DNA from: Luteibacter rhizovicinus
Lineage (GTDB): Bacteria; Pseudomonadota; Gammaproteobacteria; Xanthomonadales; Rhodanobacteraceae
Direction: 5' to 3'
Length of the DNA stretch: 64,000 nucleotides
NCBI RefSeq assembly: GCF_004342265.1
Contig: NZ_SMCS01000004.1
Coordinates: forward strand, 1 to 64,000
The notes beneath the pieces are model-generated. The model worked only from the letters and a program-made list of their open reading frames with translations. It was not told the origin of the DNA and ran no database searches. How positions within the stretch are numbered: the stretch's first letter is position 1; each line of letters opens with the position of its first letter. The translations under genes were made by a program, and so were the position numbers. Positions 6,454 through 49,629 of this stretch are shown here, piece by piece.

Positions 6454-6592
6454 TGTAGGAGCCCGCTTGCGGGCGAAAGCCAACGGGGCGGCGATGCCAT
6501 GAGTGACATCCGCAGCCCGTAGCTCGGGCTCGCGGAGGTGAGTATCCGTCTTCCTCGCCCCGTTGGCTTTCGCCCGCAAGCGGGCTCCTACA
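6454..6592. repeat. 139-bp palindromic repeat (REP doublet), copy A
   Basis: Perfect 37-bp terminal inverted repeats, beginning TGTAGGAGCCCGCTTGCGGG, flank a core that has its own hairpin (GCAGCCCG...CGGGCTCGC). The same unit occurs near 8894, 26186, 30839, 31908 and 49491. Copy A lies between the divergent efflux and sensor-kinase genes. In layout it resembles a BIME: two REP sequences facing each other. Confidence 0.85.
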
Positions 6593-6609
6593 GAGGTATT
6601 TATGCGTTT

Positions 6610-6621
6610 GTAAACGTTTAC
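6610..6621. promoter_or_regulatory. Perfect 12-bp palindrome GTAAACGTTTAC, candidate LacI-family operator
   Basis: GTAAACGTTTAC sits 75 nt upstream of the hybrid kinase start. A palindrome centred on CG with this sequence is the classic shape of LacI/GalR-family operators (and CcpA/PurR-like sites). No LacI-type regulator is encoded in the window, so the cognate protein is unknown. Confidence 0.4.
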
Positions 6622-6695
6622 GTGCCTAGGAGGGTATCGGCCGGGGAGCCAGTTCGCTCTAGACTGGCCCCCTGAAGAGCACAGGGGCAGTTGGA

Positions 6696-8873
6696 ATGGG
6701 GATCGATCGGGGAAACGCGGGCGAGGTGGCTGAGTCCGCCCTGCTCGTGGATGTGGCGACGCGCCTCCGGCACCCGCGTATCGACCGCATCGTTGCCTCG
6801 TTCCGCGAGCACCATGTGTCCGTGATGCGCGCGGTCCTGCTCGGCCTGACCACGATCTGGACGGCCTACTGGCTCAATGGAAGTCAGTTGCCCATGAAGG
6901 CCGACGCGCACTCGGCGTTCCCCCTTGCCATGGCGCTGTTCGTGCTGAGCGTCGTCTGGATGCTGTGCATCCGCGCGGCCTGGCTGCGCGACAGCACCCG
7001 GGTGGACGCCGTGGGCGTCATCGCCAACTTCGTCATGACCGGCGCGCTGCTGAAGGCCGGCTTCATGCTGGTCATTACGCTGAGCGCCGTGCTGCCGTTC
7101 CTTTCGGTGGCCGTGGGGGCCCGGTACGGACGGCGCCCCTTCATCGCCAGCATCGGGGCATCCCTGATCATCCTGGGCGTGAGTGCTCCGGCCGGTTACT
7201 GGATCAGCCGGCCCGCTTACGCGCTGTATGCGCTGGCGCTGGTCATCATCCTGCCGATCACGATCTTCCGCATGATGGACGCGTTGCGCGTGGTATCGGT
7301 GGAAGCCATCGCATCGCGCGAGGCCCAGCACCGGTTCATTTCGATGATGAGCCACGAGATGCGCACGCCGCTCAATACCGTCATTCATTCCGCGGCGCTG
7401 ATCGATACCGGCGCGATGGCCGAGGACCAGCGCCGGCTGGTGGCGCTGCTGGCCTCGAACGCGAACGCGTTGCTCCATCGGGTCAATGCGGTACTCGACG
7501 TCGCGTCGTTCAACGGAGGCCGTCTGACGTTGCGGCACCAGTCGTTTACTTTCGACGAAGTGCTGGCCACGGTGCGCGATGTCTGCCGTTCCCATGCCGT
7601 GGAAAAGAATATTTCCCTTTCGCTGGTCTGCGCACCGGTCGCGAACGGCGTGTTCAAGGGCGATCCGGGTCGCATCGAGCAGGTGCTGAGCAACCTGGTA
7701 TCCAATGCCGTGAAGTTCACGCCAACGGGCGGTCGCGTCGAGGTGGCCATCACGCTGTCCGCGTCGCCGGGGGGCATGGGCGACTCGATTCTGTGCACCG
7801 TTGCCGATACGGGCGTCGGCATCGCCGACGAGGACAAGGCGCGCATCTTCCGTCCTTTCCATCAGGTCAGCGGAGGCGCGGCAAGAACCAACGACGGCGT
7901 CGGCCTCGGGCTTTATATCGTGCGCAGCGTGTCCGATCAGATGAACGGCGCGCTCGATGTTGCCGACCGGGCCGGCGGTGGCAGTATTTTCTCGTGGCGT
8001 TTTCCGCTGGTGCGGGCGCCGGTCGGTACGAAAGCGTCCTCGGAATTGTCCGTGGCCGATCGTCTCGACGAGCATCGCGCTCGCGTGCCGGCACTCGAGT
8101 GCCTGGTGGTGGACGACAATGCTTCCAATTGCGAAATCATCGGCCGCATTCTTCATCGAGCGGGACACATCGCCACGTTCAGTACGAACGGGAACCAGGC
8201 GGTCGAATGCATCGCGGCGCATAGCTTCGATGTGGTCTTCATGGATTTGCATATGCCCGGCGGCTCGGGCTGGGACGTGATCCGGCGCATCGAGCATGCG
8301 GCCAGTGCCAGCCGCATGCCGCCCATCGTGATGCTCAGTGCCGATTCCAGCCAGGATGCGATCCGCATGGCATTCAAAGGCGGCGCCCGCGCTTATCTGA
8401 CCAAACCGATCCCGACGGCGCGTCTGCTCGACGTACTCGAATCCATCGCCGAGGAACGTCGTCTCGAACGCTTCTCGCGGACGTGGCAGCCGGCAATCGA
8501 TCCGCCCGTGGGCAGGCGGGGCGACGCCGTTCCCCTGGAGGATATGCGCGAACTGGTCTCGCCACGGGAGCTTCGCCAGTTCGTGGACCTTTGCGACGAT
8601 GCAATGCGCACGCACGGCAAGTCCCTGCGCGATGCATTGACGCGCGGCGAATATCCGGATGCGTCCGAAGCGCTGCATTCGTTGAAGAATGTCGTCGGCA
8701 ACCTGGGAGTGCCGGGTGCGACCCGTGTCTGCGACGACCTGGGTGTGCTGATCGACGCCGGCACCGGCATGGCCGGTGCGATCTTCGAACTCGACAGCCT
8801 GCTGCGTTCGGCGCATCGCTTCGTCGAGGAGCAACGTCTGCGTTTGAATGAGGCGAGCCGGGCCGACGCGTAG
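6696..8873 (+). CDS. RpfC-like hybrid sensor histidine kinase (TM - HisKA - HATPase - REC - HPt)
   Basis: A 725-aa inner-membrane hybrid kinase. Six predicted membrane helices lie at about 43-61, 75-93, 104-119, 122-140, 147-165 and 175-194. They are followed by HisKA with SHEMRTPLN (His220), an ATPase domain (N-box LSNLVSNAVKF, G1 DTGVGIAD, G2 GVGLGLYIV), a receiver with FMDLHMP (Asp517) and Lys570, and a C-terminal HPt with ALHSLKNVVGNLG (His661). Length and domain order match RpfC, the DSF quorum sensor of xanthomonads (about 726 aa). No rpfF or rpfG is adjacent, so the signal and output partner are unknown. All phospho-relay residues are present. It stands alone between two palindromic repeats. 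Confidence 0.85.
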   Translation: MGIDRGNAGEVAESALLVDVATRLRHPRIDRIVASFREHHVSVMRAVLLGLTTIWTAYWLNGSQLPMKADAHSAFPLAMALFVLSVVWMLCIRAAWLRDSTRVDAVGVIANFVMTGALLKAGFMLVITLSAVLPFLSVAVGARYGRRPFIASIGASLIILGVSAPAGYWISRPAYALYALALVIILPITIFRMMDALRVVSVEAIASREAQHRFISMMSHEMRTPLNTVIHSAALIDTGAMAEDQRRLVALLASNANALLHRVNAVLDVASFNGGRLTLRHQSFTFDEVLATVRDVCRSHAVEKNISLSLVCAPVANGVFKGDPGRIEQVLSNLVSNAVKFTPTGGRVEVAITLSASPGGMGDSILCTVADTGVGIADEDKARIFRPFHQVSGGAARTNDGVGLGLYIVRSVSDQMNGALDVADRAGGGSIFSWRFPLVRAPVGTKASSELSVADRLDEHRARVPALECLVVDDNASNCEIIGRILHRAGHIATFSTNGNQAVECIAAHSFDVVFMDLHMPGGSGWDVIRRIEHAASASRMPPIVMLSADSSQDAIRMAFKGGARAYLTKPIPTARLLDVLESIAEERRLERFSRTWQPAIDPPVGRRGDAVPLEDMRELVSPRELRQFVDLCDDAMRTHGKSLRDALTRGEYPDASEALHSLKNVVGNLGVPGATRVCDDLGVLIDAGTGMAGAIFELDSLLRSAHRFVEEQRLRLNEASRADA

Positions 8874-8893
8874 AGCGGAAGCTGACCTCAATC

Positions 8894-9031
8894 CTGTGGG
8901 AGCGTGCCTGCGCGCGAAAGCCACGGAGCGTAGAGGACGAGTCCCGATTTCGCAGCCCGAAATCCACGCTCGCGATGCAATGCCCGGCATCGCCGCTTCG
9001 TTGGTTTTTGCGCGCAGGCGCGCTCCCACAG
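8894..9031. repeat. 138-bp palindromic repeat (REP doublet), copy F (diverged)
   Basis: The ends read CTGTGGGAGCGTGCCTGCGCGC and its near-complement ending GCGCGCTCCCACAG, with the inner arm CGAAAGCCACGGAGCG. Length and plan match copy A, but the tip of the REP is the CGCGC variant also seen in the 26186 copy. It lies between the two sensor-kinase genes. Confidence 0.75.
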
Positions 9032-9111
9032 AGAGCCCTTCATATCCATAGGCGTCGTCGTAACCCTCCTCCATTGGGGTATCGTCACGACATGGGTTGA
9101 CGAGGTGACGA

Positions 9112-12100
9112 GTGCGGTTCGACCGGGGTGGGGCGTGGATAAGTGTGTTGGTTGCGTGGCTGATAGCCACGGCTTGCGCGTGGGCGGATGCGCCGGACAG
9201 TCGCGAAGAGGGTATCGGCCAGTTCTATCACACCGCCTGGACCGTGCGCGAAGGCGCGCCCGGACAGATCACCGCGCTGGCGCAGAGCAGCGACGGATAC
9301 CTCTGGCTGGGTACGCAGACGGGTCTGTACCGGTTCGACGGCGTGTCGTTCGAACGCTTCCGGCCCCGCGCGGACCGTGACTTTCCCGCATCGAGCGTAT
9401 CGGCGCTTCACGCGACGCCCGAGGGTCTCTGGGTAGGCTTCCGTTACGGTTTCGCCAGTCTGGTCACCCGCGACAGGACGATCCATTTCGACGCGCGCGA
9501 TGGCCTTCCCACAAGCACGATCTTCGCTTTCGCGCAGACGCGCGACGGCACGGTATGGGCGGCGACGTTTCGTGGACTGGCACGCTATCGGGGCCATCGC
9601 TGGGAAATGATCGGCCCCGAATGGAAGTTACCCGGCTCGCAGGCGCGAACCGTGTACGTCGATCCTGGCGGCACGCTCTGGGTAGCGACCGATACGACAC
9701 TGGCGTGCCTGCCGCCCGGCGAAACGAGTTTTCGCGTGGCGTCGGACAAGGTCGCGCGGGTCAACCGGATTCTGCAGGACCCGGCGGGCGCGATCTGGGT
9801 GGCTGAGACCGATGGCGCGGTACGGCCCGTATTCGCCGCGACGGGCGATGCGGCGGCCAACGGTCCCGAACTGAAGATTCCGGCCGCCGACTTGTTGTTC
9901 GATGCGGATGGCGCGCTGTGGGTGCCGACGATGGGAGACGGCATCCGCCGGGTGCCGAAAGTCCGGGCCATGGCCGGCAAACATATCGATAGCGAAAGCG
10001 CCGACGCCGAGCCATTCGTGGAGCGCGATGGCCTTACCTCCGACTACGTCTCGGCCGTACTGCAGGATCGCGAAGGCAATATCTGGTTCGGCAGCAGCCG
10101 GGGTCTGGACCGTTTCAGGCAAAGCAAACTGTTGCCGGCCGAATTTCCCGCCGGTTCGTTCGACTTCGCACTCGCAGCGGGCGACAACGGCGGCATCTGG
10201 GCGGGGACGAAGAACCGTGCGCTGATGAAGCTGGATGGCCAGACGGTGACCTTCGAGGATCTCCGCGTACCCGTGTCGGCCGCGTATCGCGATCCGGACG
10301 GCGTGGTGTGGCTGGGCGGTCCCGACGGGATATGGCGCATCGTCAAAGGCAAGCTGTCCCGTTTCGCCGACCTGCCCAGCGAAGGCGGTTATTCCGGCGT
10401 ACAGGCCATCGTGCGCGACAACGCCGGCGCGCTCTGGGTTTCGATCAACCGGCCGGGGATTTACCGGCTGGCCGACGGTCAGTGGACCCACGTCGAAACC
10501 TTTCCCGAATTTCCCAAAGGCTCTTCTCCGCTGTCGTTGATGACGGACCGGGCGGGGCGCGTGTGGATGGGCTTCGCGCGTAACCAGATCACGCGCAGGA
10601 ACGGCGACAAGGTCATCGTCATCACCGCCACGGAGGGTCTGGACACTGGCAATGTCACGGCTTTGCACGAGGACGGCCAGACCGTATGGGTCGGCGGCGA
10701 ACGCGGTCTCGGTTACGCCGTGGGCGATCGGATCGCGATGATTCAGTCCCTCGGCGAACCGTTGCGTGGCATTTCCGGCATCGTCCACGACAGCCATGGC
10801 GATCTGTGGCTCAACGCGGCATCGGGCATCGCGCGGATTTCGGCGAACGATATCGCGCGTGCGCAGCACGAGCCGGACTATCGCGTGCGAACGGATATCT
10901 TCGACTCGCTCGACGGAATGCCCGGTACGCCCGCCCAGTTCCGCCCGATTCCCTCGGCCATCGCGGGCACGGACGGCCGCCTGTGGTTTGCGACGACCAG
11001 CGGCGTCGTCTCCATCGATCCGGCTCACGTGCGCCATAACGCGACGCCGCCGCCCGTCGATATCGTCTCGGTGAGTACCGAAGCGGGTACCTGGGAAATA
11101 GCGGGTCCGGTGAATCTTCCGGCGCATACGCAGCGTCTGCGCATCGGTTACACCGCAGCCAGCCTCACGATGCCCGAGCGGGTACGGTTCCGCTACCGTC
11201 TGGACGGACTGGACGATCGCTGGCGCGATGCGGGCACGGACCGCGAGGCGGTGTATACGAATCCGGGGCCCGGGCGGTACACCTTCCATGTCCTGGCCCG
11301 GAACGAAGACGGCGTGTGGAACGAGCAGGGCGCGACCCTGGATATACGCATCGCGCCCGCGTTCTATCAAACGGTATGGTTTGCGCTGTTATGCGTCGTG
11401 CTGGCATTGCTGGTGCTTCGCGTCATCTTCCTTTTGCGCATGCGCCAGATGGAATCGCAGTTGCGCGCCCGGCTGCATGAGCGTCACGCGGAACGCGAGC
11501 GCATCGCCCGCGAACTGCACGACACGTTGCTGCAAAGTATCCAGGGCCTGACGATGCGCTTTCAGGCGATCGCCAATCGGGTGCCTGCCGGCACTCCGCT
11601 TCGCACGGAAATGGAGAGTGCGCTCGATCGTGCGGACGAAGCATTGGTCGAGGCGCGCGACCGTGTCAAAGACCTTCGTACTTATGTCGTCGATCTGTCC
11701 GACCTTGGCGGCGCGCTGGAAGACGTTGCGCGGGATCTCGGCCACGACCATCCGATGGCTATGCGCTGCACGATCGGTCTGGACACGGAAATCATGGACC
11801 CGATCGTCCGCGACGAGATCTACCAGATCGCGCGCGAGGCGATGCAGAACGCCTATTCGCATGCCCATGCCGATCACCTGGACATCGATATCGAAGCGAT
11901 CGACAACTTCGTGCTGTCGATCCGCGACGACGGCTGCGGCATCGATCCCGCCTTCCTCACTGCCGGTGGAAAACCGGGCCACTGGGGTTTGCGTGGCATG
12001 CGCGAACGCGCGGAGCGCATCGGCGCATCGATGACCATCGATTCGATACCCGGCTCAGGCACTCGAATCGTGCTGCACCTGCCATTGATCGAGGCCTGTC

Positions 12101-12168
12101 CTCGCACGGCGACGCGGTCCGCGCGATGGTGGCGAAGGGTGCGGCAGATGTTGGTGGGTATGCCTTAG
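9112..12168 (+). CDS. Two-component sensor with periplasmic beta-propeller (Reg_prop/Y_Y_Y) and HisKA_3 kinase
   Basis: A 1018-aa membrane kinase. A signal peptide (ending ATACAWADAP) leads into many Reg_prop propeller blades (repeated units such as DGYLWLGTQTGLYRFDG, GNIWFGSSRGLDRF, GTVWAATFRGLARY). A Y_Y_Y domain (VRFRYRLDGLDDRWRDAG) comes next, then one membrane helix at about 753-776, a HisKA_3 dimerisation domain with ERIARELHDTLLQ (His803), and an ATPase with DDGCGIDP and GHWGLRGMRERA. These sensors often respond to glycans, and a GH31 glucosidase follows directly, which makes sugar sensing a fair guess. No LuxR-type response regulator is adjacent. The GTG start at 9112 is chosen because GAGGTGA precedes it and the signal peptide follows. 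Confidence 0.88.
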   Translation: MRFDRGGAWISVLVAWLIATACAWADAPDSREEGIGQFYHTAWTVREGAPGQITALAQSSDGYLWLGTQTGLYRFDGVSFERFRPRADRDFPASSVSALHATPEGLWVGFRYGFASLVTRDRTIHFDARDGLPTSTIFAFAQTRDGTVWAATFRGLARYRGHRWEMIGPEWKLPGSQARTVYVDPGGTLWVATDTTLACLPPGETSFRVASDKVARVNRILQDPAGAIWVAETDGAVRPVFAATGDAAANGPELKIPAADLLFDADGALWVPTMGDGIRRVPKVRAMAGKHIDSESADAEPFVERDGLTSDYVSAVLQDREGNIWFGSSRGLDRFRQSKLLPAEFPAGSFDFALAAGDNGGIWAGTKNRALMKLDGQTVTFEDLRVPVSAAYRDPDGVVWLGGPDGIWRIVKGKLSRFADLPSEGGYSGVQAIVRDNAGALWVSINRPGIYRLADGQWTHVETFPEFPKGSSPLSLMTDRAGRVWMGFARNQITRRNGDKVIVITATEGLDTGNVTALHEDGQTVWVGGERGLGYAVGDRIAMIQSLGEPLRGISGIVHDSHGDLWLNAASGIARISANDIARAQHEPDYRVRTDIFDSLDGMPGTPAQFRPIPSAIAGTDGRLWFATTSGVVSIDPAHVRHNATPPPVDIVSVSTEAGTWEIAGPVNLPAHTQRLRIGYTAASLTMPERVRFRYRLDGLDDRWRDAGTDREAVYTNPGPGRYTFHVLARNEDGVWNEQGATLDIRIAPAFYQTVWFALLCVVLALLVLRVIFLLRMRQMESQLRARLHERHAERERIARELHDTLLQSIQGLTMRFQAIANRVPAGTPLRTEMESALDRADEALVEARDRVKDLRTYVVDLSDLGGALEDVARDLGHDHPMAMRCTIGLDTEIMDPIVRDEIYQIAREAMQNAYSHAHADHLDIDIEAIDNFVLSIRDDGCGIDPAFLTAGGKPGHWGLRGMRERAERIGASMTIDSIPGSGTRIVLHLPLIEACPRTATRSARWWRRVRQMLVGMP

Positions 12169-12222
12169 GGATTGCGTTTGAGATAGTTCTTGCAGGGATA
12201 GGGCTACGCGATCTCATTGTTT

Positions 12223-12260
12223 CCCCGTTTTTTCGGGGCATAATCGATCAATCTATCGAT
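12223..12260 (+). promoter_or_regulatory. Hairpin plus ATCGAT dyad in front of the GH31 gene
   Basis: A CCCCG-T6-CGGGG hairpin is followed by CATAAT, a plausible -10 element, and then by the inverted repeat ATCGAT-caatct-ATCGAT (12243-12260), about 15 nt before the start codon. It may be a promoter/operator for the glucosidase gene. No -35 element is convincing. Confidence 0.3.
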
Positions 12261-12274
12261 ACCAGGGGGCGCCC

Positions 12275-14857: not shown

Positions 14858-14880
14858 TCGGAGCAAACGTCACTTACCCC

Positions 14881-15037
14881 TCGCCGTCATTCCGGGGCAC
14901 GCCGGAATCCACGGCGAGGCGTTCGGTTGTCGCGATATGCCAACGTAGGCGCTCTTTCCAAAGAGCTACATTGTGCTACGCGCTCGCTTGCCCCACGCGG
15001 TCGCCGCGGATTCCGGCGTGCGCCGGAATGACGGTGA
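14881..15037. repeat. Second REP family: inverted pair of CATTCCGG...CCGGAAT palindromes
   Basis: Two 37-nt units (14881-14917 and 15001-15037) face each other. Each has a CATTCCGG...CCGGAATC dyad between TCGCCG and CGGCGA or GGTGA arms. The 83 nt between them contain nothing recognisable. CATTCCGGC...GCCGGAATC palindromes are common extragenic repeats in xanthomonads. This pair fills the gap between the GH31 gene and the osmoprotectant operon. Confidence 0.7.
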
Positions 15038-15062
15038 GGATGGTCTTGGTGGTGAGGGTGCC

Positions 15063-15974: not shown

Positions 15975-15977
15975 CGC

Positions 15978-20142: not shown

Positions 20143-20160
20143 TCAGCCGTTCCGCGTCGC

Positions 20161-20206
20161 CGCTTCGTTGGCCTTCGCCCGCAAGCGGGCGAAGGCCAAC
20201 GAAGCG
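20161..20206. repeat. 46-bp near-perfect palindrome, joined inner arms of the REP doublet
   Basis: Two 22-bp perfect arms (20161-20182 and 20185-20206) surround AA. The arms contain GTTGGCCTTCGCCCGC, the inner arm of the 139-bp element, but the outer GGAGC tips and core are absent. It lies between the convergent GH18 and M13 genes and probably works as a bidirectional hairpin terminator. Confidence 0.75.
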
Positions 20207-20237
20207 ATGAAGCCGAACGCTTCATCGCCCCGACGAC

Positions 20238-26185: not shown

Positions 26186-26325
26186 CTGTGGGAGCGCGCC
26201 CGCGCGCGAAAGCCAACGGAGCGAGGATGCCGTGGGTGGTATCCGCAGCCAGGACGGCGGGCTCGCGATGTGAGCGCGGACCTTCCTCGCTCCGTTGGCT
26301 TTCGCGCGCAGGCGCGCTCCCGCAG
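26186..26325. repeat. 140-bp palindromic repeat (REP doublet), copy B
   Basis: Arms run from CTGTGGGAGCGCGCCCGCGCGC to the mirrored GCGCGCTCCCGCAG, with inner arms CGAAAGCCAACGGAGCG and CGCTCCGTTGGCTTTCG. The core GATGCCGTGGGTGGTATCCG is alignable to copy A. It has the CGCGC tip variant, like the 8894 copy. It lies between the GGDEF/EAL gene and the HAD gene. Confidence 0.82.
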
Positions 26326-30740: not shown

Positions 30741-30838
30741 GGGGGAATTCCATTGAAGGCAGCGCCCGGGATCATAGCCGATCAGTTTGAATGGTCGCTG
30801 TGAGGTACGCCCGCTACGGCTGAAGGCGCTGATTGTGG

Positions 30839-30976
30839 GTAGGAGCCCGCTTGCGGGCGAAGGCCAACGGGGCGAGGAAGACGGATGCTCACATCCGCGA
30901 GCCCGATGGTCTGGCTGCGGATGCCACGTACAGCATCTCCGCTCCGTTGGCTTTCGCCCGCAAGCGGGCTCCTACA
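30839..30976. repeat. 138-bp palindromic repeat (REP doublet), copy C, inverted orientation
   Basis: The same terminal arms as copy A (GTAGGAGCCCGCTTGCGGGC...), but the core reads as the reverse complement of copies A, D and E: GAAGACGGATGCTCACATCC here matches the complement of the 31908 core. It lies in the lpoA-rsmI divergent gap (30741-31056), which holds no other recognisable element. Confidence 0.85.
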
Positions 30977-31907: not shown

Positions 31908-32046
31908 TGTAGGAGCCCGCTTGCGGGCGAAGGCCAACGGGGCGGAGATGCTGTGCGTGACATCCGCAGCCCGTAGACCGGGCTCGCGGAGGTGGGCATC
32001 CGTCTTCCTCGCCCTGTTGGCCTTCGCCCGCAAGCGGGCTCCTACA
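31908..32046. repeat. 139-bp palindromic repeat (REP doublet), copy D
   Basis: The 37-bp ends match with one mismatch (TGTAGGAGCCCGCTTGCGGG...). The core GAGATGCTGTGCGTGACATCC is nearly identical to the cores of copies A and E. It sits between rsmI and rnpB, and its right end is 29 nt before the rnpB -10 element. Confidence 0.86.
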
Positions 32047-32074
32047 AATATCCGTGGGACCGTCTCGCGACGTG

Positions 32075-32080
32075 TACAAT
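32075..32080 (+). promoter_or_regulatory. rnpB -10 element (TACAAT)
   Basis: TACAAT ends 7 nt before the predicted 5' end of RNase P RNA, the right place for a sigma-70 -10 box. The -35 region (around TCCGTG, 32051) is weak. Confidence 0.5.
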
Positions 32081-32087
32081 TCGCGGT

Positions 32088-32450
<363 letters not shown>

Positions 32451-32470
32451 TCATTCGCAACAACGGGATG

Positions 32471-39098: not shown

Positions 39099-40170
39099 AC
39101 TGGCGGAATGGATGGGCCGGCACTTCACGTCGCTGCATCTTTTCCAGTACATCACGTTCCGCGCGATCATGGCCGCCCTGACGGCGCTGGCTGTGTCGCT
39201 GCTGCTCGGTCCGGCGCTTATCCGCAAGCTTGCCGCCCTGAAGGCGGGGCAGGTCGTGCGCAGCGACGGCCCGCAGACGCATCTGTCCAAGGCGGGCACG
39301 CCGACGATGGGCGGTACGCTGATCCTGTTCGCCATCGGCGTTTCCACGCTGCTCTGGGCCGATCTCGGCAACCGTTATGTCTGGGTCGTATTGCTGGTGA
39401 CCTTCGCGTTCGGCGTCATCGGTTTCTACGACGACTACCGCAAGCTGGTACTCAAGGACAGCCGCGGGCTGGCCAGCCGCTGGAAGTATTTCTGGCAGTC
39501 GGTATTCGGTCTCGTCGCCGCGTTGTTCCTGTACTACACGCACCAGCTGCCGGCCGAGACGGCGCTGTACGTACCGCTGTTCAAGCAGGTCGCCCTGCCG
39601 TTGGGCGGGTTCTTCGTCGTGATCGGTTATTTCATCATCGTCGGCTTCTCCAACGCGGTGAACCTGACCGATGGCCTGGATGGACTGGCGATCATGCCGA
39701 GCGTGCTGGTGTCGGGCGCACTGGGCATCTTCGCTTACCTCGCGGGCAACAAGCTGTTCTCCGAATACCTCGGCATCCCGGCGATTCCGGGCGCCGGCGA
39801 ACTGGCGATCTTCTGTAGTGCGCTGGCCGGCGCGGGCCTCGGCTTCCTCTGGTTCAACACGTATCCGGCGCAGGTTTTCATGGGCGATGTCGGCGCGCTG
39901 GCCATCGGCGCCGCGCTGGGCTGCGTCGCGCTGATCGTGCGCCAGGAAATCGTGCTGCTGGTGATGGGCGGCGTGTTCGTGATGGAAACGGCATCGGTGA
40001 TGTTGCAGGTCGCGAGCTTCAAGCTGCGCGGCAAGCGCATTTTCCGCATGGCGCCGATCCACCATCACTTCGAATTGAAAGGCTGGCCCGAACCGCGGGT
40101 CATCGTGCGCTTCTGGATCATCAGCGTCGTGCTGGTGCTTATCGGTCTTGCAACGTTGAAGGTGCGCTGA
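39088..40170 (+). CDS. mraY: Phospho-MurNAc-pentapeptide translocase MraY
   Basis: A 360-aa polytopic enzyme that makes lipid I by transferring phospho-MurNAc-pentapeptide to undecaprenyl phosphate. Motifs are [34 protein letters not shown] (catalytic Asp residues) and [11 protein letters not shown]. The length is identical to that of E. coli MraY. The start is set at 39088, where GAAGGAG is correctly spaced and homology begins; an earlier ATG in frame lies deep in murF. Confidence 0.95.
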
Positions 40171-40175
40171 GAATC

Positions 40176-41399: not shown

Positions 41400-42463
41400 G
41401 CGCCCCTGTCCTCATCATGGCTGGCGGTACCGGCGGTCACATTTTTCCGGGGCTTGCCGTGGCCGATGTGCTGCGCGCGCAGTACGTGCCGGTCGTCTGG
41501 CTCGGTGCCGATGGCGGTATGGAAACGCGCGTGGTGCCGGAACACGGCATCGAACTGCATACGATCGCCGTGGGTGGTCTGCGTGGGAAGGGCTTGAAGA
41601 CGCGCGCGCTTGCGCCGCTGATGCTCGCCCGTTCGCTCGGCGAGTCCATGGCGCTGTTGCGCCGGGTGCGGCCGCGCTGCGTTCTGTCGATGGGCGGCTA
41701 TGTCGCCGGTCCGGCGGGCGTCGCCGCATGGATCGGTCGCGTACCGCTGCTCGTGCACGAACAGAATGGCGTGGCCGGCTTCACCAATCGCATGCTCGCC
41801 AGGATTGCGGGGACGGTGCTGACCGGTTTCGCCGGTACTCTTCCTCACGCCGAGTGGGTCGGCAATCCGGTGCGTGCAAGTATCGCCGGACTGCCCGCAC
41901 CCGCCGAGCGCTTTGCCGGCCGCGACGGCAAGCCGCGCGTGCTGGTGCTGGGCGGCAGTCTGGGCGCACGCGCGCTCAATCTTCGGTTGCCCGAAGCGCT
42001 GGCCGTCCTGCCGACCGACCTGCGGCCCGATGTGCTGCACCAGTGCGGCGCCCGTGGTGTCGACGAAGCGCGTAAAGCGTATGCAGACGCGGGTGTCGAG
42101 GCGCGCATCGAGCCATTCATCGACGACATGGCCGCGGCGTATGCGTGGGCCGACCTCGTGGTCTGCCGTGCTGGCGCGTTGACGATCGCCGAACTGACCG
42201 CCGCGGGTATCGGCGCGATCCTCGTGCCGTTTCCGCACGCGGTCGACGATCACCAGACACGCAACGCGCAGACGTTGCTTGCCGCGGGTGCCGCCGAACT
42301 GATCCAGGAACGCGATCTGGACGCCAGTGCGCTGGCGGGCCGAATCCGCGAACTCACCGGCGACCGCGGTCGCCTTCTTTCCATGGCCAATGCGTCCCGC
42401 ACGCTGGCCAAGCCCGACGCCGCAGCAACGATTGCACGTCATTGCATGGAGGTTTCCGCATGA
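41396..42463 (+). CDS. murG: UDP-GlcNAc:lipid I GlcNAc-transferase MurG
   Basis: A 355-aa GT28 peripheral membrane enzyme that converts lipid I to lipid [19 protein letters not shown] is the N-terminal glycine-rich loop, followed by [39 protein letters not shown] and [15 protein letters not shown] (UDP-GlcNAc site). The ATG at 41396 overlaps the ftsW stop by ATGA. Confidence 0.95.
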
Positions 42464-43899
42464 CACCCAGTCGTTTGCGTGCCCACGATGATTTCATGAC
42501 CACGTTCCGCCGTGTCCACTTCATCGGCGTCGGCGGCGTCGGTATGAGTGGTATCGCCGAAGTGCTGAACAACCTCGGCTATAGCGTGTCCGGTTCGGAT
42601 CGCGCGCCGTCGCCGACCACGCAGCGCCTCGCGCAGCTGGGTATCGCCGTGCATATCGGTCACGATGCGGCGAACGTCGTCGATGTGGATGTCGTGGTCA
42701 CGTCCAGCGCGATTCGTCAGGACAACCCGGAACTGGTCGCCGCGCGTGCCGGTCGCATTCCCGTGGTCCCGCGTGCCGAAATGCTCGGCGAACTGATGCG
42801 CTTCCGTCGCGGTATCGCGATCGCAGGAACGCATGGCAAGACAACGACGACGAGCCTCGTCGCGAGCGTGCTGGCCGAGGCCGACTACGATCCGACCTTC
42901 GTCATCGGTGGACAGTTGAATGCCGCTGGTGCGAACGCGCGTCTTGGTACGGGTCAGTACCTGGTGGCCGAGGCGGATGAATCGGATGGTTCGTTCCTCA
43001 TGTTGTCGCCGGTCATGGCTGTTGTAACCAATATCGACGCCGACCATCTTGAGAATTACAACGGCGATTTCGCGCAGGTGAAGAAAGCCTTCGGCGATTT
43101 CCTGCATCGTCTGCCGTTCTACGGTATGGCGGTGCTGTGCATCGACGACGAGGAAGTGGCGAAGCTGGCGCAGGACACGTCGCGCAGCATGCTGACCTAC
43201 GGCATCGATGCGCAGGATGCCGACGTGCGCGCGACCAACGTTCGTCAGCTTGGCTTCGAAATGCATTTCGACCTGCACCTGCCGGGCATGGATGGAACGT
43301 TGCCGGTGACGCTGAATCTGCCGGGACGGCACAACGTGCAGAACGCGCTTGCGGCGGCTGCGGTCGGTTGGCAGCTGGGTGTCGAAGCCGAAGCCATCGC
43401 GACGGCGCTCCAGCGTTTCGAGGGCGTGGGTCGTCGCTTCCATCGTCGTGGCGAAATCGCGCTGGACAAAGGCAGTGTGCTGCTGGTCGACGACTACGGT
43501 CATCATCCCCGCGAGCTGGCCGCCGTGTTCGCCGCCGCGCGTGGCGGCTGGCCCGAGCGCCGTCTGGTCGTGGCGTTCCAGCCGCACCGTTACAGCCGTA
43601 CCCGCGATCTGCTCGACGACTTCGCGAACGTGCTCGCCGAAGTGGACGTGCTGGTGCTGACCGAAATTTATCCGGCCGGCGAAGCGCCGATCCCGGGTGC
43701 GGACGGTCGCGCGTTGGCGCGGGCGATTCGTGCACGCGGCAAGACCGACCCGGTACTGATCGACCATCCGCGCGACCTGCGCGATGCGTTGCCGTCGCTG
43801 CTGCGCGATGGCGACCTCCTGATGCTGCTGGGCGCGGGCGATATCGGCACGGCCGCTATCGACCTGGCGACCGCTGGAAACCTGAGGACCCATAAGTAA
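42460..43899 (+). CDS. murC: UDP-MurNAc:L-alanine ligase MurC
   Basis: A 479-aa Mur ligase that adds the first L-Ala to UDP-MurNAc. [16 protein letters not shown] is the N-terminal nucleotide loop, [14 protein letters not shown] the ATP loop, and DESDGSF and [10 protein letters not shown] are MurC-specific. The start at 42460 overlaps murG by ATGA; a second ATG 12 codons in ([11 protein letters not shown]) is possible. The stop overlaps ddl by one base (TAATG). Confidence 0.95.
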
Positions 43900-44900
43900 T
43901 GAGCACGCAACTCACCGGCCACAACACGTTCGGCCGTACGGTGACCGATCCCGCGCAGTTCGGCCGCGTCGCGGTCGTCATGGGCGGCAGCTCGGCGGAG
44001 CGCGAGGTGTCGCTGGACTCCGGTCGCAATGTGCTGGAGGCTTTGCGCTCGAGTGGTGTGGACGCACATGTGATCGATGGCATTCCCGCGTTGCTCGATG
44101 CGGTGCGCGCCGGTCACTTCGCGCGTGTGTTCAACATCCTGCACGGTGGCGGTGGCGAGAACGGCGAGCTTCAGGGCGCTTTGCAATCGCTGGGCGTTCC
44201 CTTCACCGGTTCGGGCGTACTTGGCTCGGCTCTATCGCTGGACAAGATCCGCGCCAAGCAGGTGTGGACCGCCCTCGGCCTGCCGACCCCGCGATTCAAA
44301 GCGTTGCCGCGCGGCGCCGACGTGCATGCGGCCGCACGGGAGATCGGCTTCCCGCTGATCGTCAAGCCGGCTTGGGAAGGTTCCAGCGTCGGTATCACCC
44401 GGGTTTTCTCGGAGAGCGAACTGGACGCCGCCGTCGAACTGGCGCTGCGCTATCCGGGCGACCTGCTGATGGAAACCCTGATCGAAGGCGATGCTTCCGA
44501 GGGTGGCGAGTTCACCGTGGGCATCCTCGGTCGCGAAGTGCTGCCGACGATCAAGATCGTGCCGAAGGGCGAGTACTACGACTACAACGCCAAGTACGTC
44601 GCCGAGGATACGCAGTACATCGTGCCCGGTTTGTCCGGCGAGGCGGAGAGCGAAATGCGCGCGCTGGCACTGGCGGCATTCGACGCACTGGCCTGCTCGG
44701 GCTGGGGTCGCGTCGACGTGATGCGCGATCGTCACGGGCGCAACTGGCTCCTGGAAGTGAATACCGCGCCGGGCATGACCTCGCATTCGCTGGTGCCGAA
44801 AGCGGCAACCATCGCCGGCCTCGATTTCGCGGCCGTCTGCTGGCGCGTACTCGAATCGTCGTTCCATCCGGACGTCCGTACGAACGGAGGGCAAGCATGA
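43899..44900 (+). CDS. ddlB: D-alanine--D-alanine ligase (DdlB)
   Basis: A 333-aa ATP-grasp ligase that makes the D-Ala-D-Ala dipeptide used by Mur[47 protein letters not shown], the omega-loop region [18 protein letters not shown] with Tyr, and [16 protein letters not shown] are typical. The EYYDYNAKY motif suggests D-Ala-D-Ala rather than D-Lac specificity. MurB, often between murC and ddl, is absent. Confidence 0.94.
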
Positions 44901-45649
44901 AGGGAGCCGCCGCCACGCGGATCGTCGCCTGGGCTATCGCCATTACGTTGGTGGTGTTGCCCGTGGTCGGCGTGATGCAGGGCTGGTTCGCCGCCACACG
45001 GTGGCCGGTGACGCAGCTGAAGGTCGAAGCGGAGTTCGCGCACATCAGTGCCGAACAGCTCCGCGGCGCCGTGCTGCCTCACCTGGGTAAAGGTTTCTTC
45101 GCCACGAATCTGGAAGACGTTCGTCACGCCATCGGCGGCCTGCCGTGGGTGGAATCGGTGGAAGTGCGCAAGCGCTGGCCCGATACGCTGCTGGTGCGCA
45201 TCTACGAACGGCAGCCTTTCGCGCGCTGGAACGACGACAAACTGATCAGCCGCCAGGGTCTGGTGTTCGTGGCGGCTGGCGCCGACCAGATGGAAGGGCT
45301 GCCGCAGTTGCGCGGTCCCGATGCGCGGCTGGCCGAAGTAGTGAGTTTTTACGCGCAGGCACAGAAAGCCTTCGCGGGTCGCGCGCAGCTGCAGGTGACC
45401 GGTGTGTCGCTCAGCGACCGCGGCAGCTGGAGCGTCACCACGGAAAGCGGGGCGGACATCGTGATCGGCGATCGCGATCAGGCCGACCGCCGTCTGGCGC
45501 GCTTCCTCGATGTATATCCGCAACTGATCGCCGGTCGGCAGGGCTCGTTCGCTTACGCCGATCTTCGCTACACCAATGGATTCGCCGTCAAGTGGCCGCA
45601 GCCGGATGCGCCGGTCGCCGCCAAGTCGGGAGCTAGGGCCGGAACATGA
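44897..45649 (+). CDS. ftsQ: Cell division protein FtsQ
   Basis: A 250-aa bitopic protein: one helix ([20 protein letters not shown]), a POTRA domain ([20 protein letters not shown]) and a beta domain ([30 protein letters not shown] is the conserved core). It bridges early and late divisome proteins through FtsB and FtsL. ATG 44897 overlaps ddlB, and its stop overlaps ftsA (ATGA). Confidence 0.93.
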
Positions 45650-46881
45650 GAAATAAGAGCGATAAACAACTCGTCGTCGGCCTCGATATCGGCACCTCGA
45701 AGGTGGTCGCGATTGTCGGTGAATACGAGCCGGGCGAACCGATCGAGATTATCGGCATCGGCACGCATGTGTCGCGCGGCATGAAGCGCGGTTCGGTGGT
45801 GGACATCGAATCGACCGTGCATTCGATCCAGCGCGCCGTCGAAGAAGCCGAGCTGATGGCCGGGTGCGATATCCGCTCGGTCTACGCGTCGATTTCGGGT
45901 AGCCACCTGGAGACCAAGAACTCGCACGGTACCGCCGCGATCCGCGACCGCGAAGTGATGGCCGCCGATCTGGAGCAGGTGCTGGAAGCGGCGAGCGCCG
46001 TCGCGATCCCCGCCGATCGCAAGGTGCTCTACAAGGAATCGCAGGAATACCGCATCGACGGCCAGGACGGCATCCGCCACCCGGTCGGCATGAGCGGCGT
46101 GCGTCTGGAAGCGAGCGTGCATCTGGTGACCGGCGCGGCCAGCGCGGTGCAGAACATCAGCAAGTGCATCCAGCGTTGCGGCCTGTCGGTCGACGAACTC
46201 GTGCCCGCCGCGGTGGCCAGCGCGAAAGCGGTGTTGACCGAAGACGAGCTCGAACTCGGCGTATGCCTTGTCGACATCGGCGCGGGCACGACGGATATCG
46301 CTATCTATACGCAGGGTTCGATCCGTTATACGAAGTCGCTGCCGGTCGGCGGCGATCAGGTGACGAACGACATTGCTTATGGCGTGCATACGCCGACGGC
46401 CCACGCGGAAGAAATCAAGATCAAGTACGCATGCGCACTTGCCCAGCTGGCTCATGCCGAGGAAACGATCCAGGTGCCCAGCGTCGGCGATCGTCCGCCG
46501 CGCCGTCTGGCGCGTCAGGCTCTGGCGCAGTCGGTGCAGGCGCGTTACGAAGAAATCTTCGAGATGGTGCAGGACGAGCTGCGCCGTTCCGGTTACGAGA
46601 GTCTGGTCGCGGCGGGCATCGTCCTGACCGGCGGCGCGTCGCGCATGGAAGGCGCGCTCGAACTGGCCGAGGAAATTTTCCACAAGATGGTTCGTATCGG
46701 CGTGCCCCAGCACGTTTCCGGTCTGGGCGATGTCGTGTCCAGCGAGCTGCATTCGACGGGCGTCGGCCTGTTGCTGCATGGCTCGCGTTCGGGCGGCGGC
46801 ATGCGCAGCGCGGGAACGTCCGGTGGCAGCGTCGGCGGCATGGTCGAGAAGTTCCGTAGCTGGTTTACGAAGAACTTCTGA
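45646..46881 (+). CDS. ftsA: Cell division protein FtsA
   Basis: A 411-aa actin-like protein that tethers FtsZ to the membrane. VGLDIGTSKVVAIVGE (phosphate 1), the 1C subdomain (THVSRGMKRGSVVDIESTVHSI), VDIGAGTTDIAIY (phosphate 2) and VLTGGASRMEGALELAE (adenosine) are in order. The C-terminal amphipathic helix is VEKFRSWFTKNF. The gap to ftsZ (130 nt) holds two AGGA-loop hairpins. Confidence 0.95.
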   Translation: MRNKSDKQLVVGLDIGTSKVVAIVGEYEPGEPIEIIGIGTHVSRGMKRGSVVDIESTVHSIQRAVEEAELMAGCDIRSVYASISGSHLETKNSHGTAAIRDREVMAADLEQVLEAASAVAIPADRKVLYKESQEYRIDGQDGIRHPVGMSGVRLEASVHLVTGAASAVQNISKCIQRCGLSVDELVPAAVASAKAVLTEDELELGVCLVDIGAGTTDIAIYTQGSIRYTKSLPVGGDQVTNDIAYGVHTPTAHAEEIKIKYACALAQLAHAEETIQVPSVGDRPPRRLARQALAQSVQARYEEIFEMVQDELRRSGYESLVAAGIVLTGGASRMEGALELAEEIFHKMVRIGVPQHVSGLGDVVSSELHSTGVGLLLHGSRSGGGMRSAGTSGGSVGGMVEKFRSWFTKNF

Positions 46882-46898
46882 CCGGAAAAGTTTTTATC

Positions 46899-46921
46899 GG
46901 CGCCCGAAGGAGTTGGGCGCC
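46899..46921 (+). promoter_or_regulatory. ftsZ leader hairpin 1, GGA in loop (candidate CsrA/RsmA site)
   Basis: GGCGCCC and GGGCGCC form a 7-bp stem; the loop GAAGGAGTT displays AAGGAG. It lies 18 nt after the ftsA stop and about 90 nt before ftsZ. CsrA/RsmA proteins bind ANGGA in hairpin loops, so this fits their sites. Function is inferred. Confidence 0.4.
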
Positions 46922-46949
46922 GGGGCGATAGGAATGCCCGCAACCCGCG

Positions 46950-46965
46950 CCCGACAGGAGTCGGG
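46950..46965 (+). promoter_or_regulatory. ftsZ leader hairpin 2, ACAGGAGT (candidate CsrA/RsmA site)
   Basis: CCCGAC-AGGA-GTCGGG is a perfect 6-bp stem with an AGGA tetraloop. ACAGGA closely matches the CsrA core. It lies 46 nt before the ftsZ start and about 30 nt upstream of the ribosome-binding site GCGGAGGACGG, itself a third GGA-containing stretch. Confidence 0.45.
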
Positions 46966-47011
46966 AACGGGACATAACTAAAAATCACAAAAGTTCTGCG
47001 GAGGACGGGAA

Positions 47012-48193
47012 ATGTTTGAACTCATCGAAAAACTGGCACCGAATGCGGTCATCAAAGTCATCGGCGTGGGCGGCGGCGGCGGTAACGCCGTGGCGCACAT
47101 GGTCAACTCCAGCATCGAAGGCGTGGAATTCGTCGTTGCGAATACCGACGCGCAGGCGATGAAGAGCTGCAACTCGCGTACGCACCTCCAGCTCGGCAGC
47201 AATGTCACCAAGGGCCTGGGCGCTGGCGCGAATCCTGAAGTGGGCCGTCAGGCCGCTCTGGAAGATCGCGAGCGCATCGAGGAAATGCTCGAAGGCGCGG
47301 ACATGGTCTTCATCACCGCCGGTATGGGCGGCGGTACGGGTACGGGTGCGGCTCCGGTCGTTGCCCAGCTGGCGAAAGAGAAGGGCATCCTCACGGTGGC
47401 CGTGGTCACCAAGCCGTTCCCGTTCGAAGGCCGTCGCCGCATGCAGGTTGCCCTGAAGGGTATCGAAGACCTGTCGCAGCACGTCGATTCGCTGATCACC
47501 GTGCCGAACGAGAAGCTGCTTTCGGTGCTGGGTCGCGAAGTGACACTGCTTAATGCGTTCAAGGCAGCCAACGACGTCCTCCAGGGCGCCGTGCAGGGTA
47601 TTGCCGACCTCATCACCAGTCCCGGCCTGATCAACGTCGACTTTGCCGACGTTCGTACGGTCATGAGCGAAATGGGCATGGCCATGATGGGTTCGGGCAC
47701 CGCCCGTGGCGACGATCGTGCCCAGGCAGCCGCCGAAGCCGCGATCAACAACCCGTTGCTCGAAGACGTCAACCTCAACGGCGCGTGCGGCATCCTGGTC
47801 AACGTGACCGCGGGTCCGAACCTGACGATGCGCGAGTTCGACGAGATCGGCCGCGTGATCCACGACTTCGCCAGCGAAGACGCCACGGTGGTCATCGGCA
47901 CCTCGCTCGACCCGGAAATGCAGGACGACGTCCGCGTGACGGTCGTGGCCACGGGCCTGAACCGTGCCGCCGCCGCCAAGCAGCCGGTCCGTCAGGCGGT
48001 CCAGCAGCACGTCGAAATGCGTCAGCGTCCGCGTCCGGTCGTGCTGCGCACGGGTACCGGCAACGAAGTCGTCGACTACGCCCAGCCGGAAACCATCGCG
48101 ACGACGCGTTCGGAACCGATGCAGGCCAAGTCGGCCGAGCCCGCGATCGATTACCTGGACATCCCGGCGTTCCTGCGCCGCCAGGCCGATTGA
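47012..48193 (+). CDS. ftsZ: Cell division GTPase FtsZ
   Basis: A 393-aa tubulin homologue that forms the Z ring. [19 protein letters not shown] and the tubulin signature [12 protein letters not shown] bind GTP; the synergy loop is [11 protein letters not shown]. The linker is followed by the conserved C-terminal peptide [14 protein letters not shown], which binds FtsA and other partners. GCGGAGGACGG is a strong ribosome-binding site. The upstream leader contains GGA-loop hairpins. Confidence 0.97.
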
Positions 48194-48219
48194 TCGTCCG
48201 GACCGGCAACATCCCATGA

Positions 48220-48237
48220 CACGTCACGGATGACGTG
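48220..48237 (+). promoter_or_regulatory. Hairpin CACGTCA-cgga-TGACGTG after ftsZ
   Basis: A perfect 7-bp stem with loop CGGA, 26 nt past the ftsZ stop. Without a T-tract it is unlikely to be a full terminator; it may stabilise the ftsZ 3' end or take part in regulation together with the next hairpins. Confidence 0.35.
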
Positions 48238-48245
48238 AGGCGACG

Positions 48246-48261
48246 CCGGGCAGGAGTCCGG
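48246..48261 (+). promoter_or_regulatory. AGGA-loop hairpin 3, between ftsZ and lpxC (candidate CsrA/RsmA site)
   Basis: CCGGGC-AGGA-GTCCGG forms a 6-bp stem (one G-T pair) around the same AGGA tetraloop as hairpin 2 of the ftsZ leader; GCAGGAGTCCGG parallels ACAGGAGTCGGG. It is 235 nt before lpxC. Confidence 0.35.
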
Positions 48262-48267
48262 ACGCCG

Positions 48268-48307
48268 CCGCGCTCCGCCGCCGACCCGTCCGGGCGGCGG
48301 AGCGCGG
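48268..48307 (+). terminator. 15-bp stem hairpin between ftsZ and lpxC (terminator or attenuator)
   Basis: 48268-48282 pairs perfectly with 48293-48307 around a 10-nt loop. The stem is almost all G and C and is followed by TTCGCTG, a poor U-tract. It probably lowers read-through from ftsZ into lpxC. The rest of the gap (48308-48495) is a less GC-rich leader with no clear promoter. Confidence 0.5.
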
Positions 48308-48495
48308 TTCGCTGTCGCCAGGTTACTGATTCGTAATAACTTTCGATGTGGACGCGGACGAGAATGACTCGCAATAATTGCTGAAGGAACAGTGAAGGAT
48401 ATCTAGACTGTACCGTCTGGTTTGTTTATTCCGAGGTTAAGACTGTGTTAGCATTTCCGCCACTTCAGGCTGCTGCCAGACAGGTTTGACCAAAA

Positions 48496-49407
48496 ATGAT
48501 TAAGCAGCGCACGCTCAAGAACATCATTCGCGCCACTGGCGTCGGTCTTCATACCGGCGACAAGGTGTACATGACGCTTCGTCCCGCGGCGCCGAACACC
48601 GGCATCGTGTTTCGACGCACCGACCTCAACCCGCCTGTCGATCTTCGGTCGCATCCGGAAAACGTCGGCGACACGCGTCTCTCCACGACCCTGGTCAACG
48701 GCGACGTACGCGTATCCACGGTCGAGCATCTGCTCTCGGCCATGGCCGGTCTTGGCATCGACAACGCTTATGTCGACCTGTCCGCACCGGAAGTGCCGAT
48801 CATGGACGGCAGCGCCGGTCCGTTCGTCTTCCTGATCCAGTCCGCTGGTATCGAGGAACAGGACGCACCGAAGCGCTTTATCCGTATCAAGAAGCCGGTC
48901 AAGGTACAGGACGGCGACAAGTGGGCCCGCTTCGAGCCGTTCGACGGCTTCAAGGTCGGCTTCTCCGTCGAGTTCAACCATCCGCTCTTCAACAAGCGCA
49001 ATTCGCAGGCCGAGATGGATTTCTCGACGACGTCGTTCGTCAAGGAAGTCAGCCGCGCCCGCACGTTCGGTTTCATGCGCGACATCGAAATGCTGCGCGA
49101 GCGTAACCTCACGCTCGGCGGTTCGATGGACAACGCCGTGGTGCTCGACGATTACCGCGTTCTCAACGAAGACGGTCTGCGCTACGACGACGAGTTCGTG
49201 AAGCACAAGATCCTCGACGCGATCGGCGACATCTATATGCTGGGCCATAGCCTGATCGGTGCGTACTACGCGCATAAGTCCGGCCACGAGCTCAACAACA
49301 AGCTGCTGCGCACGCTGATGGCCGACGCCACCGCGTGGGAAGAAGTCAGCTTCAAGGATCCGGCCCAAGCGCCGATTTCCTACGCCCATCCCGCTGCGGC
49401 GGTCTGA
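48496..49407 (+). CDS. lpxC: UDP-3-O-acyl-GlcNAc deacetylase LpxC
   Basis: A 303-aa zinc amidase for the committed step of lipid A synthesis. [21 protein letters not shown] is the start. Zinc ligands are His78 ([17 protein letters not shown]), His237 and Asp241 ([10 protein letters not shown]); the catalytic His is His264 ([12 protein letters not shown]). Standard length. It follows ftsZ as in E. coli and has its own terminator downstream. Confidence 0.96.
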
Positions 49408-49445
49408 TCGGGGCGGGCGCCGCGAGGCGCTGTCGGGTAACGAAG

Positions 49446-49473
49446 AAGCCGCGGCCATGCCGCGGCTTTTTTG
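49446..49473 (+). terminator. Intrinsic terminator of lpxC / end of the dcw cluster
   Basis: AAGCCGCGG and CCGCGGCTT (9-bp perfect stem, 5-nt loop) are followed by TTTTTTG. This is a classic Rho-independent terminator, 39 nt after the lpxC stop. Confidence 0.9.
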
Positions 49474-49490
49474 TTTCCCGGCGCGGCCAT

Positions 49491-49629
49491 TGTAGGAGCC
49501 CGCTTGCGGGCGAAAGCCAACGGAGCGGTGAAGATGTGCGTGACATCCGCAGCCCGTAGATCGGGCTCGCGGATGTGGGCATCCATCTTCCTCGCCCTGT
49601 TGGCTTTCGCCCGCAAGCGGGCTCCTACA
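49491..49629. repeat. 139-bp palindromic repeat (REP doublet), copy E
   Basis: Ends as in copies A and D, with two mismatches between the arms; core GATGTGCGTGACATCCGCAGCCCG. It lies in the 405-nt gap between lpxC and dciA. After it, 49630-49769 holds a short GC palindrome (GCCGCGaacGCGGCTC) and nothing else I recognise. Confidence 0.86.

What the first reader, a model, noticed from the sequence alone, without database searches (positions are those of the whole stretch)
6454..49629. Six copies of a 138-140 bp inverted-repeat element, in both orientations
Copies lie at 6454-6592, 8894-9031, 26186-26325, 30839-30976, 31908-32046 and 49491-49629. All have terminal arms of about 37 bp (TGTAGGAGC...CGAAAGCCAACGG..CG), nearly constant length, and a core with its own hairpin. 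The 30839 copy has the core inverted, so the unit behaves as a discrete element and not just as two chance REPs. Two tip variants exist: CCCGCTTGCGGG and CGCGC..GCGCG. The constant size suggests spread as one unit, like a RAYT-mobilised BIME or MITE, and the full unit could fold into a long cruciform.
Basis: partly seen in the sequence, partly recalled or inferred. Interest (0 to 1): 0.7.

Follow-up and report, generated by a model that had tools for sequence, protein, structure and literature searches.

The report
Species-specific REPIN family, Luteibacter-group bacterium
The six repeats are copies of a tiny hairpin-shaped DNA element that has spread through this bacterium's genome, most likely with the help of one transposase-like enzyme that the bacterium also carries; this is a known kind of element, newly seen here.

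Summary
All six copies are real, 136-139 bp long, with inverted arms and a core; five cores align well and the 8895 copy is the most diverged. The "inverted core" copy at 30839 is the whole element on the other strand. Genome-wide there are 331 arm sites at up to 3 mismatches (control 1). On 444 kb of the window's contig, 38 of 54 arms sit in full-length head-to-head doublets and 33 of 34 repeat sites are intergenic.

This is a REPIN (REP doublet forming a hairpin). The one RAYT transposase gene found is flanked by REPs with the same two palindromes. Among 23 genomes of the genus, only this one gave full-length matches. The element is absent from all nine comparable sites in the closest relative.

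The RAYT keeps one locus in 22 genomes; palindromes differ between RAYT lineages. Such co-evolution is already described. Mobilisation by the RAYT is inferred, not shown.

The least expected by-product is a 20-nt motif beside the REP palindrome, shared with other palindromes in the genus and a second genus. Verdict: a new member of a known kind.

The parts
6454..6592 (+). REPIN copy, type A tips, 139 bp; arms 6454-6490 and 6556-6592 (100% complementary), intergenic
8895..9030 (+). REPIN copy, type B tips, 136 bp, most diverged copy; the orientation is uncertain (core score 32 against 31)
20148..20219 (.). Fused hairpin: inner arms of two REPs joined over one palindrome, without GTRGGA ends; the only such site in the genome at 3 mismatches
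   Evidence: (I24)
26187..26324 (+). REPIN copy, type B tips, 138 bp, intergenic; not present in G016
30838..30976 (-). REPIN copy, type A tips, whole unit in minus orientation; not present in G016
31908..32046 (+). REPIN copy, type A tips; ends 41 bp upstream of the RNase P RNA gene (32088-32452); not present in G016 (gap about 190 bp here, about 48 bp there)
49491..49629 (+). REPIN copy, type A tips, used as the reference; downstream of a hairpin with T-run that is conserved in G016; not present in G016
49491..49513 (+). Left REP of the reference copy: TGTAGGA, palindrome GCCCGCTTGCGGGC, GA
49514..49533 (+). Tail motif beside the left REP (AAGCCAACGGAGCGGTGAAG), found beside other palindromes in relatives
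49543..49576 (+). Central hairpin of the core (ACATCCGC A GCCCG ... CGGGC T C GCGGATGT)
49607..49629 (-). Right REP of the reference copy, inverted

Best explanation
The element is a REPIN: two inverted REP sequences (GTRGGA plus a short palindrome) around a conserved core, 136-139 bp in all, non-autonomous and carrying no gene. Shown: many copies of near-fixed length in both orientations, almost all between genes; one intact-looking RAYT gene flanked by REPs with the same two palindromes; no copy at the comparable sites of the nearest relative; no target duplication at the ends. Inferred: the RAYT (an HUH single-strand endonuclease) binds the folded REP arms when the DNA is single-stranded, cuts next to GTRG, perhaps at a C|T or T|T step (the first element base is T in 40 of 43 units and the base before it C or T in 35 of 43), and joins the strand elsewhere, so that the whole hairpin unit spreads. 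Most copies now probably act only passively, as intergenic hairpins that may stabilise 3' ends or help end transcripts.
For: Fixed unit: 38 of 54 arms on 444 kb in full HH doublets, lengths 139 (17), 138 (1), 136 (1). 331 arm sites genome-wide, control 1. Mean identity among 38 units of 139 bp is 87%, against 28% in their 40-bp flanks, so homology stops at the ends. 33 of 34 repeat sites intergenic where 15% of the sequence is. A direct repeat of 2 bp or more at the ends is seen in 0 of 41 units (shuffled mean 0.7-0.9), as expected of single-strand transposition. RAYT: PF01797 31 bits, NF047646 142.9 bits over a cut-off of 80, TnpA-REP structure 4er8 E 6e-11, HxH and Tyr present, type A palindrome upstream, type A and type B downstream. 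Lineage-specific spread: full-length matches in 1 of 23 genomes; 0 of 9 comparable sites occupied in G016 (eight of them aligned). Palindrome class differs between RAYT groups: 10 of 10 'same' genomes other than G000 have GCCG.. or GCCAGC, 10 of 10 'inv' genomes other than G016 have GC[GC]C... Structure: 91.3% of 2279 cells paired, 27 cells changed on both sides against 11.0 in shuffles, 0 of 500.
Against: No movement was seen. Copies are not recent: the best pair of units is 97.8% identical and the mean 87%. No exact empty site could be read, because intergenic DNA of G016 is too diverged. 'Pairs with a change on both sides' is not above shuffles (9 against 7.2, 115 of 500). The aligned units were chosen by arm similarity or by similarity to the reference, so conserved arms are partly a selection effect. 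The nearest relative keeps a RAYT but shows no 18-mer five times or more in 400 kb, so a RAYT alone does not ensure spread. The two palindrome classes were drawn up after seeing the data; G000 itself has palindromes of the 'inv' class (GCCCGC, GCGCGC) but is outside the 'inv' RAYT clade, and G016 gave no palindrome (some in the looser scan). The RAYT's own REPs differ slightly from the dispersed ones (3-nt loop upstream, GTAGG before the B palindrome). Searches scored only 40 and 37 of 139 candidate places in G000, and one search scored 37 of more than 37 in eight relatives.
Confidence: 0.9

Rival explanations
1. The copies are kept mainly as transcription terminators or mRNA-stabilising hairpins, and were spread by selection and gene conversion and not by a transposase.
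For: Very stable RNA hairpin (-119.4 kcal/mol); 9 of 19 HH units lie between convergent genes, against 41 of 265 gaps (16.4 of 65.9 kb of gap) on the same contig.
Against: Three of those nine are one tandem array, so the convergent excess is modest. Three HH units lie between divergent genes, and one sits upstream of the RNase P RNA gene. Nine of nine comparable units are missing in the nearest relative, and homology ends sharply at the arms.
Confidence: 0.07
2. A MITE of another (DDE) transposase, with terminal inverted repeats of about 37 bp.
For: Long terminal inverted repeats and constant size.
Against: The ends carry GTRG-tagged palindromes like those beside the RAYT. 0 of 41 units have a direct repeat of 2 bp or more at the ends. 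I did not search the genome for DDE transposases with such ends.
Confidence: 0.02
3. Chance pairs of single REPs.
For: 6 arms counted as single, 4 solo palindromes and 4 tail-to-tail pairs also exist on 444 kb.
Against: Near-fixed spacing, alignable core and matching tips.
Confidence: 0.01

Closest known systems
REPINs of Pseudomonas fluorescens SBW25 (Bertels and Rainey 2011, PMC3116915; passages read)
   Same: Two inverted REPs forming one hairpin, intergenic, cognate RAYT, tandem clusters that include flanks, singlets read as remnants.
   Different: The paper says the spacer is less conserved than the REPs. That holds here too, but the core is still well conserved (85% among A units) and the unit is long (139 bp).
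GTAG-type HH and TT REP dimers (Di Nocera et al. 2013, PMC3733652; passages read)
   Same: GTRG tag outside, HH dimers with conserved spacers and TT dimers with variable ones, homodimers, spacers with small stem-loops.
   Different: A 20-nt shared tail was not mentioned in the passages seen (a 3-bp tail of GTAG-1 and GTAG-2 is).
RAYTs with flanking REPs of Xanthomonas and Stenotrophomonas (Nunvar et al. 2010, PMC2817692, and 2013, PMC3686654; passages read)
   Same: RAYT flanked by inverted REPs, orthologous loci with changing REPs, RAYT evolving faster than its neighbours; the X. campestris REP GTAGGAGCGCGCTCGCGCGCGA is close to type B.
   Different: Host group, palindrome, and the extended arm and core.
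TnpA-REP / REPtron biochemistry (PMC8266576; passages read)
   Same: Family of the protein; GTAG plus hairpin recognition; cleavage at C|T beside the REP.
   Different: No biochemical data exist here.

Membership tests
REP (GTRG-tagged palindrome) | 5' GT(A/G)G followed by a short palindrome | tested here: met
   GTRGGA plus 6-bp palindrome in both arms; 98.9% of palindrome pair cells formed in each arm over 38 units
REP (GTRG-tagged palindrome) | High copy number, intergenic | tested here: met
   331 arm sites; 33 of 34 sites intergenic on 444 kb
REPIN | Two inverted REPs at near-constant distance, folding into one hairpin | tested here: met
REPIN | Doublet, not singlet, is the main form | tested here: met
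   38 of 54 arms in full HH doublets, 10 in other pairs, 6 counted as single
REPIN | Cognate RAYT flanked by matching REPs in the genome | tested here: met
REPIN | Excision or transposition intermediate in reads | not testable with these tools
   no reads available
RAYT (TnpA-REP) | Y1/HUH transposase domain with HxH and catalytic Tyr | tested here: met
   which Tyr is catalytic is recalled from the family and not tested
RAYT (TnpA-REP) | Cuts cognate single-stranded REP | not testable with these tools
   needs the protein
MITE of a DDE transposase | Target-site duplication beside the ends | tested here: not met
   0 of 41 units with a direct repeat of 2 bp or more (two copies of the tandem array dropped)

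The most novel reading that the evidence does not exclude
Some REPs of this group carry a third recognised module besides GTRG and the palindrome: a 20-nt tail (AAGCCWACGRAGCGRTGAAG) beside the palindrome that stays while the palindrome is rewritten together with the RAYT. It would be bound by the RAYT or a host protein and would mark one continuing element lineage through changes of specificity.
Probability: 0.2. Interest if true: 0.55.

Novelty: new member of a known kind. Interest (0 to 1): 0.3.

Why it matters
It adds a clean, uniform REPIN family from the Rhodanobacteraceae. It also gives a natural series: 22 genomes, each standing for one species, with the RAYT at one fixed locus but with several palindromes. 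That series could be used to map which RAYT residues set REP specificity. The shared tail motif may give a way to follow one REPIN lineage through palindrome changes.

Tried and rejected
Insertion into pre-existing hairpins: left and right flanks of 43 units were tested for complementarity. The summed score was 164 against a mean of 133.6 (largest of 300 shuffles 163), but units with score 6 or more were 6 against a mean of 2.8 (largest 9), so this is at most weak and carried by a few sites (C4:251285, with about 20 bp). Only a pyrimidine-left, purine-right preference is clear (41 units).

Exact empty sites: attempted against G016 and abandoned, since intergenic DNA is too diverged. Target duplications: 0 of 41.

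Excision-scar idea: solo palindromes (both GTRGGA ends, no core) number 26 in the genome at 2 mismatches, 12 of them exact; 5 of the 26 have another palindrome (GCGCTC). The reciprocal core-to-core junction exists once. This fits deletion of the core between the two palindromes but equally fits plain terminator hairpins; not pursued.

Core inversion within fixed arms: rejected. Clover fold against long hairpin: the tips covary in both, so the alignment cannot choose. Plasmids and phages: no blastn match at E 1e-5 in 72,556 plasmid and 50,697 phage records. Replacement of the RAYT by another lineage: not needed for G000 and G016, which are sisters in both trees.

Not in print, as far as searched: three sequence strings (two papers, unrelated by title and abstract start) and Luteibacter with REPIN/RAYT or REP terms (listings only, the two papers were not opened) showed no description of this family in the open-access library. 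Searches were general searches on RAYTs. Subscription papers are not covered.
Full report
What was checked. They share arms of about 37 bp and a length of 136-139 bp. Cores align well for the 139-bp units (38 units, which leaves out the 136- and 138-bp copies at 8895 and 26187 and three others of unlike length); the 8895 core is the most diverged in the window. The copy at 30839 is the whole unit in the minus orientation and not a unit with a flipped core.

Host. The genome (G000, 4.47 Mb, 22 contigs) belongs to a genus code of 23 genomes. The closest genome by the RNase P gene (98%) and lpd (96%), G016, has a contig of 509180 bases with its RAYT at the same place as NZ_JACHYH010000003.1 of Luteibacter sp. 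Sphag1AF. I therefore take the genus as Luteibacter (Rhodanobacteraceae). That is an inference; the species is not known.

Census. The arm pattern with 3 mismatches gives 165 + 166 sites in the genome against 0 + 1 for the reversed pattern (only the first places were listed). A homology search scored 40 of 139 candidate places, and all 40 are near-full-length copies at 89-100% identity. On 444 of 452 kb of contig C4 there are 58 arm hits at 4 mismatches: 4 are solo palindromes and 54 are arms. Of the 54, 38 are in 19 full head-to-head units (12 with A tips, 7 with B), 2 in one shortened unit, 8 in four tail-to-tail pairs (all B), and 6 were counted as single. Two of the 6 are ends of one diverged unit of about 167 bp beyond my limit, and two look like other hairpins. 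C4 holds 57 of the 331 sites at 3 mismatches, so about 110 full units may exist in the genome; this is an extrapolation. Three of the 19 lie in one tandem array of about 275 bp spacing. 33 of 34 sites are intergenic by a simple home-made coding model.

Anatomy. Unit ends are T-GTRGG and CCYAC-A. First comes the REP palindrome (GCCCGCTTGCGGGC or GCGCGCCTGCGCGC), then GA, then a tail beginning AAGCCAACGRAGCG, then a core with its own hairpin. Homology stops at the ends: flanks of 38 units are 28% identical on average, the units 87%. The base before the first T is C or T in 35 of 43 units and the base after the last A is A or G in 36 of 41. No unit of 41 has a direct repeat of 2 bp or more at its ends. 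As single-stranded DNA the unit folds into one long hairpin, z -16.5. Over 38 units 91.3% of pair cells are standard pairs, and cells changed on both sides are 27 against 11.0 in shuffles (0 of 500), though the number of pairs with such a change is not above shuffles. The separate REP hairpins covary too, so the alignment does not tell the long hairpin from a three-hairpin clover.

The transposase. The genome has one match to PF01797 and one to NF047646, the same gene: 151 aa, 142.9 bits against a cut-off of 80. It is related to the TnpA-REP of structure 4er8 (that this is the E. coli protein is recalled). It lies between lpd and a permease gene (names by my reading of the proteins). Upstream is a type A palindrome with a 3-nt loop; downstream are an inverted type A REP and a type B palindrome with GTAGG. 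The two palindromes that built the dispersed family are thus the two beside the only RAYT found.

Relatives. The A-type arm with 2 mismatches occurs 114 times in G000 and 0-25 times in the others, most often in G022. Of the sites on C4 with alignable surroundings in G016, 0 of 9 full units is present there (window: 8895, 26187, 30838, 31908, 49491; outside: 112978, 131297, 148522, 215876, all but 8895 also). Only C4 up to about 241 kb aligned. No 18-mer occurs five times in 400 kb of G016. RAYT is found in 22 of 23 genus genomes (missing in G011, 80% complete): one in 20, two in G020, three in G022. In 22 of 22 one RAYT lies beside the permease gene, and in 20 lpd was also seen on the fetched piece; identity to G000 is 89-96% for lpd, 81-91% for the permease, but 55-68% for RAYT. 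Its orientation against these neighbours is the same in 11 and inverted in 11, with two changes on the RAYT tree and three on the neighbour-gene tree of 19 genomes. Palindromes go with the RAYT groups in 20 of 20 genomes other than G000 and G016. G000 has palindromes of the 'inv' class without lying in that clade, and G016 gave none in that call, so the rule is not perfect, and it was drawn up after the fact. Fast RAYT evolution, fixed loci and RAYT-REP co-evolution are already reported (PMC2817692, passages read).

The tail. AAGCCWACGRAGCGRTGAAG with 3 mismatches occurs 213 times in G000, 209 in G005, 189 in G021 and 52-88 times in G008, G010, G012 and G013, against 0-4 per genome for the reversed pattern; several relatives, G016 among them, are near background. 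It directly follows a REP palindrome in 25 of the 30 loci fetched (the best one or two per genome; about nine different half-stems; one with a worn GTRG tag; the five others look like chance hits; my reading), and in 26 of 30 loci from four genomes of another genus, g13, chosen because they had many hits. Against a general rule: in the RAYT loci of named Luteibacter most REPs lack it (0 of 15, 0 of 10, 0 of 18, 1 of 15, 0 of 14, 2 of 18, 0 of 5 and 1 of 3), and most of the 197 family genomes have few hits. It is a recurrent spacer module of some REPINs, not part of every REP.

Comparison with what is known. The element meets every feature of REP and REPIN that could be tested: inverted doublets, hairpin, intergenic, cognate RAYT (PMC3116915, PMC3733652 and PMC3686654, passages read). 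The conserved spacer fits the published remark that HH dimers tend to have conserved spacers (PMC3733652). C|T cleavage beside the REP is published for TnpA-REP (PMC8266576, passages read) and fits the boundary seen here only loosely. I file it as a new REPIN family. What is not shown is movement itself.

Noticed in passing
window 31908-32088, and L090, L095, L098, L101, L102, L104, L105: The short gap just upstream of the RNase P RNA gene is a repeated landing place: REPs with their own palindromes sit there in at least 7 of 22 relatives as well as in the window; G016 has none there (my reading).
   Followed up: partly
G000:C10 26160-26615 and L188-L209: The RAYT cassette lies in either orientation at one fixed locus across the genus; sister genomes G000 and G016 differ, which suggests inversion in place between the flanking inverted REPs.
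   Followed up: partly
L211, L212 (G022): Two extra RAYT copies near contig starts have F or L where the other RAYTs have the conserved Tyr after 'AR', so they may be inactive.
   Followed up: no
window 14879-15039: A different inverted repeat (GTCATTCCGG...CCGGAATGAC) with 39-nt arms, 92% complementary; a related 18-mer occurs 8 times on C4.
   Followed up: no
C4:251285-251423 (L042:7285-7423): This unit sits in the middle of a nearly perfect 20-bp inverted repeat of the flanking DNA.
   Followed up: no
C4:95705, 263304, 339446, 375799: Type B REPs also form tail-to-tail pairs of 71-75 bp; type A does not on this contig.
   Followed up: partly
26 places in the genome, e.g. C4:66106-66131: Solo palindromes with GTRGGA at both ends and no core, possible deletion scars or plain terminators.
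   Followed up: partly
G005:C1 1919102-1922781: Long cluster of the tail motif, mostly at about 118-bp spacing, in a relative.
   Followed up: no
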